DNA from: a virus | Direction: 5' to 3' (one strand) | DNA: 23,212 nucleotides | IMG/VR virus record: IMGVR_UViG_3300037246_002490 | Span: 1 to 23,212 of that record | Shown: one piece after another, positions 1,812 through 22,718 of the stretch | Layout of the letters: each line of letters starts with the position of its first letter | Numbering within the stretch: the stretch's first letter is position 1 | Program-made: the position numbers and the translations under genes | Notes under the pieces: model-generated | Seen by the model: only the letters and a program-made list of their open reading frames with translations | What the model was told of the DNA's origin: nothing | Databases searched by the model: none

Positions 1812-2111
1812 TTATTTCACCCTTCTATAATTCAATCGCCAGAGCAATTTTCCAATATCAATTGCTGTTCTATCAACTACCTTCTCAGACTTATTCCAAT
1901 TTGAGGCATGAAGGCACTCATGTAATAATACAGTAAGCATTAATCGAGCATGCCTATCATCACCATAAGGCAAACTCTCAGTCAACGTAACAACGGGACG
2001 AGCGATTGTGATACGTGGAAGCCCAAGCTCTTTGGTCGTTTCGCCTTTGAAGCCCTCAACATCTATTGCAAATAATTTGCCATTAAACCGATGAGTTTTT
2101 ACTTTACGCAT
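1812..2111 (-). CDS. Small HExxH-motif protein, possible zinc metalloprotease
   Basis: 99 aa from ATG 2111, overlapping the protease stop as TAATG and preceded by GGAG. A zinc-binding consensus HECLH lies at residues 64-68 within a hydrophobic helix (LMLTVLLHECLHASNW), followed about 15 residues later by VVDRTAIDIGKLLWRL, whose acidic residue could supply a third ligand as in minimal gluzincin-like folds. The length is near the lower limit for a catalytic metallopeptidase domain. It directly follows a serine protease gene, so the head operon carries two candidate proteases side by side. Activity is inferred from the motif only. Confidence 0.7.
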   Translation of the reverse strand: MRKVKTHRFNGKLFAIDVEGFKGETTKELGLPRITIARPVVTLTESLPYGDDRHARLMLTVLLHECLHASNWNKSEKVVDRTAIDIGKLLWRLNYRRVK

Positions 2112-2881
2112 TACTCTCCACTATAATGTGATTGAGAATAACCATCCCAATTTTTTGCTGCTTCTACTTTGTACTTCTCAAAAACAAACATCAGTTTAAT
2201 GTTTTCAATATCCCCAAGAAACAAATCACTGGGCATACTACAATTAAGAACAGGGCTATAACCACCGACCAAGAGTCCCCTAACAACCCCATCCATCGTA
2301 AATACAGGACCACCGCTGTTGCCTGGATGAGCACCTGCATCAGACGTAAACGCCACTTTCCAACCATAAGGTCCTCCATAATTACTTATTTCGTCCCAGT
2401 CTCTGTCAAGTCCACTTACAATTCCCAGTGTCACACTATTGAAATTTATTTTGCCATAAGGACTTCCAATGATAAACACTGGTTGGCCTAATGCACATTT
2501 CTTAATGCTTCCGAATTTGGCTGGTTTTAGCACCGCTTTTGAAACCTTAATAAACCCAATGTCATAATCTTTATGAACAATGGCTTGAGTACCTTTTAGC
2601 ACCACACCATTCTGTAATGTAATGGTGTAATTCGTTCCGTCTACAACGTGACGTGCGGTCACAACAATATCTTCTGTAATAGCCACGCCTGAACCTTGCC
2701 AACGGTCACACATAATATGAACCACACTTGGCAACACTTCTTGTATCTTATTTGGAAACTGAGTAGTCACTGCTGGCTCTGACCTTGCTCTTTCTTTTAA
2801 TGCTGCTGGTATTGTAATGACACTTACAACAGCCAGTATAAACGCCATCAAGAGCACTTCAAATTTTCCTACCTTTTTCAT
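2111..2881 (-). CDS. Membrane-anchored trypsin-like (PA clan) serine protease
   Basis: 256 aa. ATG 2881 overlaps the portal stop as ATGA, with GGAG just upstream. Residues 1-7 are basic and about 8-28 form a hydrophobic signal or anchor segment. The catalytic domain follows with all three triad residues in HtrA/trypsin context: His78 in VVTARHVV, Asp107 in HKDYDIGFIKV, and Ser189 in PGNSGGPVF. An oxyanion-loop Gly pattern and a GSG start of the first barrel (QGSGVAI, residues 62-68) are also present. No PDZ domain follows. Phage prohead proteases normally belong to other folds (S14/ClpP-like, S49, S78, U35), so an S1-type enzyme right after the portal is unusual. It could act as a maturation protease or in the host envelope; the hydrophobic N-terminus favours the membrane. 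Confidence 0.88.
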   Translation of the reverse strand: MKKVGKFEVLLMAFILAVVSVITIPAALKERARSEPAVTTQFPNKIQEVLPSVVHIMCDRWQGSGVAITEDIVVTARHVVDGTNYTITLQNGVVLKGTQAIVHKDYDIGFIKVSKAVLKPAKFGSIKKCALGQPVFIIGSPYGKINFNSVTLGIVSGLDRDWDEISNYGGPYGWKVAFTSDAGAHPGNSGGPVFTMDGVVRGLLVGGYSPVLNCSMPSDLFLGDIENIKLMFVFEKYKVEAAKNWDGYSQSHYSGE

Positions 2882-7357: not shown

Positions 7358-7430
7358 TCCAAGTGGCAAGAGTCGAACTTGCAATCTCACGACCCCAAAT
7401 CGTGTGGCTTGCCAATTAGCCTACACTCGG
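7358..7430 (-). tRNA. tRNA-Pro (anticodon UGG)
   Basis: Read on the minus strand, the 73-nt cloverleaf is complete. The acceptor stem CCGAGTG/CACTTGG has one G-U pair. The D stem is GGCT/AGCC with GG in the loop. The anticodon stem CACGA/TCGTG has loop TTTGGGG, giving anticodon TGG. The T stem is GCAAG/CTTGC with loop TTCGACT. The discriminator is A and CCA is not encoded, so the host would add it. It is 3 bases downstream of tRNA-Ala and upstream of the head genes, probably on the same leftward transcript. Confidence 0.93.
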
Positions 7431-7433
7431 TAA

Positions 7434-7504
7434 TGGAGTCACTCAGAATCGAACTGAGATTTCCGCCTTGCAAGGGCAACGTTCTCCCGTTAAACTATGT
7501 CCCC
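7434..7504 (-). tRNA. tRNA-Ala (anticodon UGC)
   Basis: 71-nt cloverleaf on the minus strand: acceptor GGGGACA/TGACTCC, D stem GTTT/GAAC, anticodon stem TTGCC/GGCGG with loop CTTGCAA (anticodon TGC), variable AAAT, T arm CTCAG-TTCGATT-CTGAG, discriminator A. The third acceptor pair is G3-U70, the key identity element for alanyl-tRNA synthetase, which supports the assignment. Oddities: an A-A mismatch at pair 5-68 and two G-U pairs closing the anticodon stem, so the fold is weaker than usual. No CCA is encoded. Confidence 0.88.
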
Positions 7505-7512
7505 AAATATTG

Positions 7513-9296: not shown

Positions 9297-9559
9297 AAAC
9301 AGATTTTAAGCACATTTATTTTGATAATATTTCTGAGGAATATCCTAAACGAAAAACTCAAGTTTGGATTTGTCGGAGCAATGGGTCAGATGATTTTTTG
9401 GGGTTAGTAGAATGGTATGCTCCTTGGAGACAATACTGTTTTTCTACAGAAGCTGGTGTTATTCTTGCTAAAAGTTGTTTAACAGATATTGTTTATTTTA
9501 TAATACATTTGAATATGGAGAAAAATGAAAAAAACAAGAGTAGTTCATTGCCGTCGTGA
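9293..9559 (+). CDS. Conserved-looking small phage protein
   Basis: 88 aa, ATG overlapping the previous stop (AAATGA). The core (EEYPKRKTQVWICR, DFLGLVEWYAPWRQYCF, and LAKSCLTDIVYFI) reads as a compact beta-rich fold rich in Trp. I have seen this pattern as a short conserved phage hypothetical protein, but no function is known to me. The last 35 bases overlap the next gene. Confidence 0.7.
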   Translation: MKTDFKHIYFDNISEEYPKRKTQVWICRSNGSDDFLGLVEWYAPWRQYCFSTEAGVILAKSCLTDIVYFIIHLNMEKNEKNKSSSLPS

Positions 9560-9818
9560 GGCTTATGATGTGATGATTGACCGGACGACTGACTTCGGGA
9601 ATCCATTTCCAATAACTAAAAGTTTTACAAGGGAGCAATCCATAGAGCAGTTTAGAAATTATTTTCGTGCAAGGTTAGCATCTGACCCAGCATTTAAGAA
9701 AGCAGTGTTAGCTTTAGCTGGTTTAACCTTGGGATGTTGGTGTAAGCCAAAGGCATGTCACGGTGATGTGTATGTTGAATACCTGGAGGGATTAGACGAT
9801 GATAATGCTGTGTCCTAA
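9525..9818 (+). CDS. DUF4326-family protein
   Basis: 97 aa from ATG 9525 with GGAG five bases upstream. It shows the family signature: a start with VVHCRREAYDVMIDRTTDFGNPFP, split here as VVHCRREAYDV then IDRTTDFGNPF, and the C-terminal LGCWCKPKACHGDVYVEYL. The Cys/His pair in CWCxxxxCHGD may bind metal or be catalytic. The family is common in phages and mobile elements and has no established function. It sits just upstream of the polymerase group. Confidence 0.88.
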   Translation: MKKTRVVHCRREAYDVMIDRTTDFGNPFPITKSFTREQSIEQFRNYFRARLASDPAFKKAVLALAGLTLGCWCKPKACHGDVYVEYLEGLDDDNAVS

Positions 9819-14162: not shown

Positions 14163-14191
14163 TTGCATTGTCATACAACATGTGGTATACT
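14163..14191 (+). promoter_or_regulatory. Promoter, conserved family copy P1
   Basis: TTGCAT, 17 bases, TATACT. The 19 bases AAAAGATTTTACTTGCATT (14151-14169) recur exactly at 15667-15685. It reads into the 44-aa gene at 14236. Confidence 0.7.
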
Positions 14192-14746: not shown

Positions 14747-14766
14747 AACAAAAAGGATTTTGTTCT
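14745..14766 (+). terminator. 9-bp hairpin joined to promoter P2
   Basis: AGAACAAAA-AGGA-TTTTGTTCT is a perfect 9-bp stem with a 4-nt loop; its last base is the first base of the P2 -35 box. It could end the P1 transcript. No T-run follows. Confidence 0.45.
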
Positions 14767-14793
14767 TGCAATTATCAAAATATGTTGTATACT
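14766..14793 (+). promoter_or_regulatory. Promoter, conserved family copy P2
   Basis: TTGCAA, 16 bases, TATACT, preceded by AAGGATTTTGTTC. The TGTTGTATACT -10 region is identical to that of P3. Drives the gene at 14836 and those after it. Confidence 0.7.
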
Positions 14794-15678: not shown

Positions 15679-15706
15679 TTGCATTAGCTGAAAAATGTTG
15701 TATACT
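15679..15706 (+). promoter_or_regulatory. Promoter, conserved family copy P3
   Basis: TTGCAT, 16 bases, TATACT, with the same 19-base upstream block as P1 (15667-15685). It reads into the 67-aa gene, the kinase-like gene and the Gp88-like gene. Confidence 0.7.
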
Positions 15707-15727: not shown

Positions 15728-15931
15728 ATGAAAAACGAATTGAAAAACTGTTTAACCGTGCTGCAAAAAAGCTTCTATGAAAATCAAGCAGCTCATGCAG
15801 CGAAATTACCGGAGCTTTTCAACTTTCCGGATAATGGAGATTATTATCAACAAACCAAAGGCGTAATTTTTGGGATTCAAGGTTGTTTGAATTACGTCAA
15901 TGAGTTTTTGGGACGATTGGAGAAATCATGA
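15728..15931 (+). CDS. 67-aa helical protein
   Basis: Start at ATG 15728, with GGAG nine bases upstream; an ATG 33 bases earlier falls in the P3 -10 box and is excluded. Two helices surround LFNFPDNGDYYQQ. The stop overlaps the kinase-like start as ATGA, so the two are co-translated. Confidence 0.65.
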   Translation: MKNELKNCLTVLQKSFYENQAAHAAKLPELFNFPDNGDYYQQTKGVIFGIQGCLNYVNEFLGRLEKS

Positions 15932-16422
15932 GAAAATCAGATAATGTACGTATTCCAGATTTTTTGGCAGACTACAAATATATCGGCAAAGGCTGCGAAT
16001 GCAAAGTTTTCGAGATTGTCAAGCAAAAGCTTGTTTGCAAAGTCTATTATTCAGGTGCCGATGCAAAATATAACTATACGTTACAACGCATCGGATACCG
16101 AGCGGGTATTGCACCGCAACCACTGGCACTTGAGAATAACTACTATTTTTCAAGGTACGTAATGGCATGGGAAAAACTGGAAGTTGCCAAACATAAATCA
16201 TGGTATACAATTAAAGAACAGGTGAAATTCAAAAATTTTATAAAGAAAATAACGGAAATTTTTGGTGGTTATTGGAACGACGACCATAGCGGAAACGTAG
16301 GGATATTGGTAGTACGTGGTAGAAAACGTTATGTTATTATAGACTTCGGCGTAGCCGGGTTTGATAAAACTGTGTTAGGCGAATTACTAAGCGAAAAACT
16401 TGATGTATATTGGGATTATTAA
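15928..16422 (+). CDS. Minimal protein-kinase-like protein
   Basis: 164 aa, ATGA-coupled to the previous gene. Kinase core elements are in order: a Gly-rich loop IGKGCECKVFEI (G20xG22xxxxV27), the ATP lysine in LVCKVYY (K38), a hinge-like FSRYVMAWEKLE, a catalytic loop WNDDHSGN (D118-x-H120-x-x-N123) and IIDFG (DFG 139-141). The DxHxxN form is that of aminoglycoside-phosphotransferase/RIO-like kinases. Almost the whole C-lobe after DFG is missing, so it is much shorter than typical kinases (about 250 aa). It could phosphorylate a host protein or small molecule, or be a binding scaffold. The fold call is strong; activity is open. Confidence 0.8.
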   Translation: MRKSDNVRIPDFLADYKYIGKGCECKVFEIVKQKLVCKVYYSGADAKYNYTLQRIGYRAGIAPQPLALENNYYFSRYVMAWEKLEVAKHKSWYTIKEQVKFKNFIKKITEIFGGYWNDDHSGNVGILVVRGRKRYVIIDFGVAGFDKTVLGELLSEKLDVYWDY

Positions 16423-16424
16423 TC

Positions 16425-17057
16425 ATGGGAACGATAAACTACGTATGTAAACGCAGACCGAAATATTCAGGCGTTTTTAGTTTCGGTAACAGTAAACTGC
16501 CATACAGTACAGCAGTTTTTAACATGACAAGTGCTACAGATTGCCCGTCTTATAAACGCGGCTTGTGCCAGGTTGATAAACTACAAAACAAAGTACGTCG
16601 GTGTTATGCATTGCGAACCGAACGGATGTTTCCGAAAACTTGTTTGGTATATAAGAGAAAACAAGCTGCATATTGGGCAAAGTGCAGTAATTTGACTTTC
16701 ATTACTGATTTGCAAATTGCCACTAAAAACATGAAAACCATTACGGCTTTGCGATTCAATGAATCAGGCGATTTTCGTTCGCAGCGTGATGTTAAAAAAG
16801 CTGAAAAAATAGCAGCGGCATTACATGATTTCGGCGTAAAAACTTATTGCTATACTGCAAGACGCGACCTGGATTTTAGCAAAGTAAAATATCTAATTAT
16901 CATGGGTAGCGGGTTTGTCAAGCCAGGGATTAAAGGCGAATTTCGGGTAGTAAAAACAGCAGCAGAAAAACCCAAAGGGTTTGGAATTTGCTGCGGGGAT
17001 TGTACTCATTGCCGCCGATGTATTGACGGCAAAAATACTGTTGTGATTTTACATTAA
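16425..17057 (+). CDS. Gp88-like phage protein
   Basis: 210 aa from ATG 16425, just after the kinase stop; a TTG at 16410 has no site. Residues of note are CPSYKRGLCQV and RRCYALRTER near the start, the central ALRFNESGDFRSQRDV, and VKTYCYTARRDLDFS, which match the pattern of the Gp88 domain first named in mycobacteriophages (conserved SGDF and YTxR). The end holds CCGDCTHCRRC, a Cys cluster able to hold zinc or iron-sulfur. Biochemical role is not established. Confidence 0.72.
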   Translation: MGTINYVCKRRPKYSGVFSFGNSKLPYSTAVFNMTSATDCPSYKRGLCQVDKLQNKVRRCYALRTERMFPKTCLVYKRKQAAYWAKCSNLTFITDLQIATKNMKTITALRFNESGDFRSQRDVKKAEKIAAALHDFGVKTYCYTARRDLDFSKVKYLIIMGSGFVKPGIKGEFRVVKTAAEKPKGFGICCGDCTHCRRCIDGKNTVVILH

Positions 17058-17428: not shown

Positions 17429-17457
17429 TTGACAAGCCATAACGAATTTGTTATAAT
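17429..17457 (+). promoter_or_regulatory. Consensus sigma-70 promoter P4
   Basis: TTGACA, 17 bases, TATAAT: a perfect consensus. It differs from the TTGCAT family and starts a new unit with the gene at 17493. Transcript start near 17464. Confidence 0.8.
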
Positions 17458-17477: not shown

Positions 17478-17495
17478 TGAAAGGGTTTGAAAATG
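17478..17495 (+). promoter_or_regulatory. Repeated ribosome-binding element, copy 1
   Basis: TGAAAGGGTTTGAAAATG. AAAGGG is the Shine-Dalgarno. Copies at 17681 and 17883 differ by one or two bases. Confidence 0.65.
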
Positions 17496-20947: not shown

Positions 20948-21148
20948 ATGGCAGTAAGAGAATATTATAGTCATAAAAAAGCAGACGAAAAGAAAAGACA
21001 AAGAGGCAACCAGGCAGCGGCACGTCAGTTGCTGCGAAATAGCCGGAGTAATGCTCAGCAACTACGAAAATTAGATGCTGGTAACGGTGCTGGTGGTAGT
21101 GCTTACGTTGCTGCAAAAGAAAGAGCAAGATTGGGGGACGTGAAATGA
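20948..21148 (+). CDS. 66-aa basic, Ala/Arg-rich protein
   Basis: ATG 20948 behind GAGGAAC. Highly basic (HKKADEKKRQRGNQAAARQL) with a Gly-Ala stretch. Overlaps the radical SAM start (ATGA). Could be a nucleic-acid-binding peptide. Confidence 0.6.
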   Translation: MAVREYYSHKKADEKKRQRGNQAAARQLLRNSRSNAQQLRKLDAGNGAGGSAYVAAKERARLGDVK

Positions 21149-22116
21149 AGTTAGAAGATATAGGATTCTATACCTTGAGTGATGCACGTGCTGCTGTTGC
21201 TACGCACTGCTCACCATTACAGCGGTGTGAGTTGTTGGTAACACAGCGATGCAACTTTAATTGTCCTTATTGTCGGAAGTTGGAAGGGCAGGAGCTTAGT
21301 TTGGACGACGCAGCAAAAATTCTTAAGCTTTGGATACGGGACGACCTACAGAATCTGCGGTTCTCTGGTGGCGAACCAACTTTGTGGCCTTACTTAGAGG
21401 AATGTGTAAGGTACTGTAAGATTGCAGGAGTTAAGCGAATTGCTGTTTCCACCAACGGCAGTGCTGACTGGGAGCTTTATGAACGTCTTATCAAAGCTGG
21501 TGTCAATGATTTTAGTGTGTCACTTGATGCCTGTTGTTCAGAAGGCGGTAATGTTATGTCCGGTGTCAAAGACCAGTTTAATAAAGTTGCAAAAAATATT
21601 GAACTGATATGCAGCCGTAAAATCTATCTGTCTGTTGGGGTTGTGCTCACTGACGAAAATATCGGTGAAGTAGACAAGATAGTGGCGTTTGCTCACAGTC
21701 TGGGAGTAAGTGACATACGGGTGATACCTGCTGCTCAACACAGCAAGGCCTTGCCAGAGATACAACCTGGTTATACCAAGATTTACCCAATACTTAAGTA
21801 CAGGCTAAACAACATGAAGGCCGGTAACACTGTTCGTGGATTGCAGGAAACTGATAATCACCGTTGTCCGTTGGTGTTGGACGACATGGCAGTGTGGGAT
21901 GGACACCACTATCCTTGTATAATTCATCTGCGGGAAGGTGGTGCTCCAATAGGTAAGGTTAGTGCCAAGATGAGAGACGAACGATTTTGGTGGTTCAGCA
22001 TACATGATACACACGTAGACCATATTTGCAAAGGTAATTGCCTTGACGTGTGTGTGCAGTACAACAATCGTGTTCGTGAACTGCGAGAAATTAACAAACG
22101 TAATTGGGAGAAGTGA
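21145..22116 (+). CDS. Radical SAM enzyme, SPASM-like C-terminus
   Basis: 323 aa from ATG 21145, coupled by ATGA. The [4Fe-4S]-binding CxxxCxxC is at Cys36/40/43 (CNFNCPYC), followed by FSGGEPTL (SAM binding), ISTNGS-type VSTNGSAD and VSLDAC. The C-terminal part has CPLVLDDMAVWDGHHYPC and CKGNCLDVC, spaced like SPASM/twitch auxiliary cluster ligands. Such enzymes mature peptides or RNA; substrate cannot be read. It resembles no QueE, MiaB or anaerobic NrdG by length. It lies four genes upstream of rtcB in one transcript. Confidence 0.9.
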   Translation: MKLEDIGFYTLSDARAAVATHCSPLQRCELLVTQRCNFNCPYCRKLEGQELSLDDAAKILKLWIRDDLQNLRFSGGEPTLWPYLEECVRYCKIAGVKRIAVSTNGSADWELYERLIKAGVNDFSVSLDACCSEGGNVMSGVKDQFNKVAKNIELICSRKIYLSVGVVLTDENIGEVDKIVAFAHSLGVSDIRVIPAAQHSKALPEIQPGYTKIYPILKYRLNNMKAGNTVRGLQETDNHRCPLVLDDMAVWDGHHYPCIIHLREGGAPIGKVSAKMRDERFWWFSIHDTHVDHICKGNCLDVCVQYNNRVRELREINKRNWEK

Positions 22117-22328: not shown

Positions 22329-22718
22329 ATGTGGCTTCTTGTAGATGATAAACGCAGCCTTGATAGTAGTGAGGTTGATATTATTGCCCGCAATAGTCAG
22401 GCCGCTATGGAAATACTGTTAGGCATGGGCCACAGGTTAACTGGTTTGGTACTTGACTATGACCTGGGAGAAAAAGAGAACATCGGCAAGGGCGGCAGAC
22501 GCAGTAGAGAAATCACGGGGTATGATGTGCTGATGTTCGCTATTGTAAACGAAGTCCTGCCCCTTACTGTTCAGATTATTACTGATAATCCGGCTGGTAG
22601 AGAGCGACTTCATAACGGGTTGATACATGACGCAAAGTATGTTATAAAAACCGTTCAAAGTCATGGCCGAACTCGAATTACTTATGTTAAACCAGATAAG
22701 GACGAAATTGTAAAATGA
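22329..22718 (+). CDS. Receiver-like cREC-type protein
   Basis: 129 aa from ATG 22329 behind AAAGGGA. It keeps a receiver-domain layout: acidic pair in LVDDKRS (D6/D7), an acidic loop GLVLDYDLG (D43/D45 after the third strand) and VQIITDNPAG in place of the switch Thr/Ser strand, with GYDVLMFA between. There is no output domain. Small proteins with this pattern (DDxR ... DxDLG ... GYDxL ... TxNPxG) are known as the cREC, or cyclic-phosphate-processing receiver, type, linked in the literature to RNA-repair operons. The rtcB gene two positions downstream supports this. ATGA-coupled to the next gene. Confidence 0.75.
   Translation: MWLLVDDKRSLDSSEVDIIARNSQAAMEILLGMGHRLTGLVLDYDLGEKENIGKGGRRSREITGYDVLMFAIVNEVLPLTVQIITDNPAGRERLHNGLIHDAKYVIKTVQSHGRTRITYVKPDKDEIVK

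What the first reader, a model, noticed from the sequence alone, without database searches (positions are those of the whole stretch)
15928..16422. 164-aa kinase-like protein with full active-site motifs but almost no C-lobe
All core elements (GxGxxxxV, K38, DxHxxN, DFG) are present in a protein of 164 residues, ending 23 residues after DFG. Either a minimal active kinase or a nucleotide-binding scaffold. It is coupled to a 67-aa partner and sits under a phage promoter, so it is probably an accessory (host-takeover or anti-defence) gene.
Basis: partly seen in the sequence, partly recalled or inferred. Interest (0 to 1): 0.65.

Follow-up and report, generated by a model that had tools for sequence, protein, structure and literature searches.

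The report
Compact early-region phage protein-kinase-fold gene
A small phage gene encodes a protein with the ATP-binding and catalytic half of a protein kinase and almost nothing after it; it belongs to a previously unnamed family of such mini-kinases found in environmental phages, and is probably an early tool for modifying the infected host.

Summary
In detail: window 15928-16422 (+) encodes 164 aa with G20xG22xxxxV27, K38, D118xHxxN123 and D139FG141, ending 23 residues after DFG. It is not a truncated longer kinase: no frame after the stop holds C-lobe remains, and the next gene starts 3 nt later. No Pfam, NCBIfam, PDB-sequence or phage-record match names it. Motif scans of viral contigs found relatives: L067 (141 aa, full-length match, ends VDFGF) and 'family A' (about 20 loci). 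A profile built without the window protein recovers it (hhalign 96%, E 1e-9, 119 columns; HMM E 8e-7 against 0.08 for the best of 2000 shuffles). AlphaFold2 on this alignment (pLDDT 74, pTM 0.72) gives a kinase N-lobe, helix E, catalytic loop and DFG; the top PDB matches are kinase-fold (RIO2, Rio1, OspG, Bud32). Compactness is normal here: 51 of 52 related ORFs under 330 aa end within 35 residues of the DFG-like motif. A sigma70-like promoter precedes the operon. The 67-aa partner has no relatives; a GP88-family gene adjoins the kinase here and in all 21 family A loci where it can be seen. Most likely an early host-takeover or anti-defence kinase, possibly needing a partner. Activity is untested.

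The parts
15679..15706 (+). sigma70-like promoter element TTGCAT-N16-TATACT upstream of the kinase operon, third of three similar elements (others 14163-14191, 14766-14793)
   Evidence: pattern scan, 3 found against 0.05 expected; consensus match only
15728..15931 (+). 67-aa upstream ORF, stop overlapping the kinase start (ATGA)
   Evidence: no relatives found
15928..16422 (+). compact kinase-fold protein, 164 aa
15985..16008 (+). glycine-rich loop, G20xG22xxxxV27
   Evidence: sequence; G22 invariant in the 21-sequence alignment
16039..16041 (+). beta-3 lysine K38
   Evidence: sequence; invariant in the 21-sequence alignment and not part of the search motif
16279..16296 (+). catalytic loop D118-D-H120-S-G122-N123
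   Evidence: sequence; pattern match
16342..16350 (+). D139-F-G141 metal-binding motif
   Evidence: sequence; pattern match
16351..16419 (+). 23-residue tail after DFG with one short helix (147-157) in the model; helices F to I of a usual C-lobe absent
   Evidence: AlphaFold2 model, low confidence at the very end
16425..17057 (+). GP88-family protein (PF17338, phrog_1392), 210 aa, function unknown; a family that also adjoins the kinase in family A phages

Best explanation
The gene encodes a compact protein of the protein-kinase-like fold: an ATP-binding N-lobe plus only the part of the C-lobe that carries the catalytic loop and DFG. Shown by computation: the fold, the complete ATP, metal and catalytic residue set, and membership of a family of 140-180 aa phage proteins that end at or soon after DFG. 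Inferred: it is made early by host RNA polymerase from a sigma70-like promoter and phosphorylates host proteins to redirect the cell or blunt defences, working like the kinase domain of T7 gp0.7 or JSS1_004; because helices F-I are missing, substrate binding probably comes from the short tail, a dimer or a partner protein. My estimates: kinase fold 0.95; catalytically competent, alone or with a partner, 0.6; host-takeover or anti-defence role 0.5.
For: Motifs complete. Family profile built without it recovers it: hhalign probability 96.4, E 1.2e-9, 119 columns; HMM E 7.9e-7. Full-length match to L067. K38 invariant in 21 sequences. AlphaFold2 pLDDT 73.8, pTM 0.72, order b1-b2-b3-aC-b4-b5-aE-catalytic loop-b7-b8-DFG. 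All 50 top Foldseek PDB rows are kinase-fold; VIA-align Z about 10 to RIO and ABC1-type chains. Early-type region with three sigma70-like promoters. T7 gp0.7: the N-terminal ~30 kDa domain is an active Ser/Thr kinase (PMC4858673), with its DFG-like Asp at 213. JSS1_004 kinase inactivates DndFGH and phosphorylates other defence proteins (PMC12345140).
Against: No direct sequence link to gp0.7 (hhalign 1.7-7%; the family profile misses T7 and phage P14). The aC helix (43-58) has no Glu; the conserved residue there is Gln53. No activation segment, APE or helix F. SteC cut shortly after DFG is inactive and OspG needs a partner (PMC13395416). No substrate, no expression data, no close homologue for selection tests. 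The relatives were found by the catalytic motif, so conservation of D118/H120/N123/D139 is partly built in.
Confidence: 0.55

Rival explanations
1. Pseudokinase or nucleotide-binding scaffold: it keeps the fold and binds ATP but does not transfer phosphate; it acts by binding a host or phage protein, perhaps as a decoy or switch.
For: No helices F-I, no activation segment, Gln in place of the aC Glu; relatives L007 and L067 end 0-2 residues after the DFG-like motif; SteC truncated at a similar point is inactive.
Against: K38 and all metal and catalytic residues are kept in the window protein, L067, L007 and family A; pseudokinases usually lose some of them.
Confidence: 0.25
2. It transfers a phosphate or another ATP-derived group to a small molecule or nucleic acid, or AMPylates protein, rather than phosphorylating proteins. 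The DxHxGN loop is common to aminoglycoside, choline, ABC1 and RIO-type kinases.
For: Catalytic loop D-x-H-x-x-N instead of HRD; fold matches include RIO and ABC1/UbiB-type chains; weak ABC1 profile hits of relatives.
Against: No substrate-binding helical subdomain as in APH or choline kinases; too short to bind a small substrate by itself in the known way.
Confidence: 0.12
3. The motifs are a chance resemblance in an unrelated small phage protein.
For: No Pfam, NCBIfam or PDB sequence hit; single-sequence AlphaFold2 gave only pLDDT 39.
Against: Profile recovery, N-lobe test, aligned model and fold searches.
Confidence: 0.03

Closest known systems
Phage T7 gp0.7 / JSS1_004 kinase domain (Autographiviridae; phrog_15752, phrog_2828)
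   Same: Phage-encoded early kinase; DxHSGN loop and DFG-like TDP; the domain ends soon after that motif; the 182-aa Aquamicrobium phage P14 member ends 9 residues after its TDP Asp.
   Different: No detectable direct sequence similarity; no basic C-terminal shutoff domain; DFG instead of TDP; the window phage has a family A DNA polymerase and no RNA polymerase gene was seen in the fragment.
phrog_4301 (unknown function)
   Same: Weak match over the glycine loop and K38 (E 0.035); the relative L007 matches nearly full length (E 9e-6).
   Different: No significant full-length match of the window protein.
RIO1/RIO2 kinases
   Same: Best fold matches; no activation loop; D-x-H-x-x-N type catalytic loop.
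   Different: RIO proteins are larger (chains of 220-300 aa in the matches); no sequence match; RIO N-terminal helices absent here.
Minimal bacterial effector kinases OspG and SteC
   Same: Depleted C-lobe; OspG (about 170 aa in the structures) is among the top fold matches.
   Different: Those act on animal-cell proteins; OspG is activated by an E2-ubiquitin conjugate and SteC by phosphorylation (PMC13395416); no sequence link.

Membership tests
Protein-kinase-like fold superfamily | N-lobe b1-b5 with aC, then aE, catalytic loop, b7-b8, DFG | tested here: met
   model pLDDT 73.8, pTM 0.72; all top PDB rows kinase-fold
Protein-kinase-like fold superfamily | Glycine loop, b3 Lys, catalytic Asp, Asn and DFG Asp | tested here: met
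   sequence; invariant in the family alignment
Eukaryotic-like (Hanks-type) kinases | aC Glu, HRD, activation segment with APE, helices F-I | tested here: not met
   residues 43-58 contain no Glu; the loop is DxHxxN; only 23 residues follow DFG
T7 gp0.7 kinases | Sequence similarity to the gp0.7 kinase domain | tested here: inconclusive
   direct hhalign 1.7-7% and no profile hit in T7 or P14; an intermediate, L007, reaches phrog_15752 at E 6.5e-4
T7 gp0.7 kinases | C-terminal basic transcription-shutoff domain | tested here: not met
   the chain ends 23 residues after DFG; phage P14's short member lacks it too
T7 gp0.7 kinases | Phosphorylates host proteins | not testable with these tools
   needs an assay
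Compact phage kinase family with L067 and family A (defined here) | Profile match over N-lobe and catalytic region | tested here: met
   hhalign 96.4%, E 1.2e-9; hmmsearch E 7.9e-7; L067 full-length match
Compact phage kinase family with L067 and family A (defined here) | Adjacent GP88-family gene | tested here: met
   21 of 21 family A loci whose flank is visible and the window; order reversed in the window, and L067 and L007 records have none

The most novel reading that the evidence does not exclude
A hitherto unnamed, widespread family of phage kinases that end at or just after DFG and are active only as part of a complex, with the GP88-family protein encoded next door supplying or controlling substrate binding, so that kinase and GP88 form a two-protein early module.
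Probability: 0.15. Interest if true: 0.7.

Novelty: new variant of a known kind. Interest (0 to 1): 0.45.

Why it matters
If active, these proteins show how little of the kinase fold is needed for phosphotransfer, and they extend phage-encoded kinases with a possible counter-defence role well beyond T7-like phages. Relatives that stop at the DFG motif itself make the question of where substrates bind directly testable, and the recurring GP88 neighbour gives a first candidate partner for a protein family of unknown function.

Tried and rejected
Pfam, NCBIfam, PADLOC and PDB-sequence searches with the protein: nothing significant. Plain protein scans of viral contigs, GTDB genomes and 50,697 phage records: no relative. 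Single-sequence AlphaFold2: pLDDT 39, not used for conclusions. One search is void: the pattern had 40 instead of 37 free bases; the corrected scan is. A first alignment (A5) put the window protein out of register after the hinge and was replaced by A6. The genome-contig scan gave one chance match. Truncation or frameshift of a longer kinase: rejected, no C-lobe remains after the stop. Direct membership of the gp0.7 family: not demonstrable; the 94% value for the profile containing L007 is circular, since L007 sits on both sides. A relation of the 67-aa ORF to genes next to relatives: none found. GP88 linkage: the GP88 proteins of the window and of family A match the same Pfam and PHROG families but not each other by hhalign (6%), so this is association by family only. 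Three of 49 other records (2.24 Mb) also hold a GP88 gene, so a direct neighbour by chance would be of the order of 0.3%.

Full report
Observation. The ORF at 15928-16422 (+) is real and as described: 164 aa, G20xG22xxxxV27, K38, D118xHxxN123, D139FG141, 23 residues after DFG. It starts with ATG behind GGAGA, overlaps the upstream 67-aa ORF by ATGA, and is followed after 2 nt by the next gene, so it is not the front of a broken longer kinase; no frame after the stop looks like a C-lobe. The record is an IMG/VR virus fragment of 23,212 bp, a tailed phage with a family A DNA polymerase and a terminase distantly like those of Proteus, Acinetobacter and Vibrio phages.

No library names it. Pfam, NCBIfam, PADLOC and the PDB sequences give nothing significant; PHROG gives only a weak hit to phrog_4301 over the glycine loop and K38. 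Direct protein scans of phage records, viral contigs and genomes found no relative.

Relatives were reached through the catalytic motif. Degenerate DNA scans of viral contigs returned many small ORFs with a glycine loop, a lysine, DxHxGNxG and IDxG. They include L007 (144 aa, ending IIDW), L067 (141 aa, ending VDFGF) and about 20 loci of one coherent family, here called family A (148-176 aa). Of 52 such ORFs under 330 aa, 51 end within 35 residues of the IDx tripeptide. Ending near DFG is therefore the rule in this class.

Is the window protein one of them? An HMM of family A built without it scores it E 7.9e-7, against 0.08 for the best of 2000 shuffles. The catalytic part is partly circular, because that motif was the search key, so the N-lobe half was tested alone: E 0.015, above all 5000 shuffles. 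L067 bridges: it matches the window protein from end to end (28% identity, phmmer 30.5 bits) and matches the family A N-lobe at E 1.7e-9. Profile comparison of the window protein with L067 plus family A gives probability 96.4%, E 1.2e-9, over 119 columns. K38 and G22, which were not in the search key, are invariant in the 21-sequence alignment.

Structure. Alone, AlphaFold2 failed (pLDDT 39). On the 21-sequence alignment it gave pLDDT 73.8 and pTM 0.72, with b1 16-21, b2 25-30, b3 35-40, aC 43-58, b4 65-69, b5 72-76, aE 101-112, the catalytic loop at 118-123, b7 124-129, b8 132-137, DFG, and one short helix at 147-157. All 50 top Foldseek matches in the PDB are kinase-fold proteins, led by RIO2 and the compact effector kinase OspG; VIA-align gives Z about 10 to ABC1-type, RIO and other kinases. 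BFVD matches include other small phage proteins, one of 146 aa and the 182-aa 'putative serine/threonine-protein kinase' of Aquamicrobium phage P14. The aC helix has no Glu; Gln53 is the conserved residue there.

Relation to T7 gp0.7. [quoted passage not shown] Its DFG-like TDP is at residue 213, so a 30 kDa domain would extend only some tens of residues further (my inference). The P14 protein is a clear gp0.7 relative (E 5e-16) that ends 9 residues after its TDP Asp. The architecture is therefore known. Homology of the window protein to gp0.7 in particular is not shown: direct profile comparison gives 1.7-7% and the family profile finds nothing in T7 or P14. L007 is a weak bridge (phrog_15752 E 6.5e-4, phrog_4301 E 9e-6). 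I file it as working like a compact phage kinase, not as a gp0.7 member.

Neighbourhood. Three TTGCA-N16-18-TATACT elements lie at 14163, 14766 and 15679, against 0.05 expected by chance; the third sits directly before the 67-aa/kinase/GP88 gene run. The 67-aa ORF has no relatives. The following gene is a GP88-family protein (PF17338 E 1e-7). In all 21 family A loci where the flank can be seen, a GP88/DUF7227 gene lies just upstream of the kinase on the same strand, directly or with room for at most about one small gene between, while only 3 of 49 other records, 2.24 Mb in all, hold a GP88 gene. This is suggestive of a functional link, but the order is reversed in the window and the two GP88 proteins are very distant.

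Function. The likeliest role is an early kinase that modifies host proteins for takeover or counter-defence. Precedents are T7 gp0.7 and JSS1_004, whose kinase domain phosphorylates DndFGH and other defence proteins (PMC12345140). Caution on activity: SteC constructs ending shortly after the DFG-like motif are inactive, and OspG needs a partner (PMC13395416). A partner-dependent kinase or a pseudokinase is therefore a serious alternative. No assay could be run here.

Noticed in passing
L009 and L016 (viral contigs): Kinase-like segments (GRESMVF...VFKL...WKDAHQGNVG...VIDGD) lie inside very large ORFs of 1877 and 2407 aa, so mini-kinase domains also occur embedded in large phage proteins.
   Followed up: no
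window 17429-17457: Perfect sigma70 consensus promoter TTGACA-N17-TATAAT with TG before the -10, followed by ORFs at 17487 and 17680.
   Followed up: no
window 22329-22718: Protein with a cyclic-phosphate processing receiver domain (PF20274, E 6e-11), near a radical SAM protein at 21145-22116.
   Followed up: no
window 9525-9818: DUF4326 protein (E 1e-23) upstream of the family A DNA polymerase gene.
   Followed up: no
L056 (4315-4373 and 5841-5899): Two compact kinase-like ORFs on opposite strands about 1.5 kb apart in one contig, possibly a divergent duplicated pair.
   Followed up: no
window 7358-7505 (-): Adjacent tRNA-Pro (TGG) and tRNA-Ala (TGC) genes in the strand-switch region.
   Followed up: no
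window 2111-2881 (-): Trypsin-like protease with an N-terminal hydrophobic stretch next to the virion genes (PF13365 E 2e-21).
   Followed up: no
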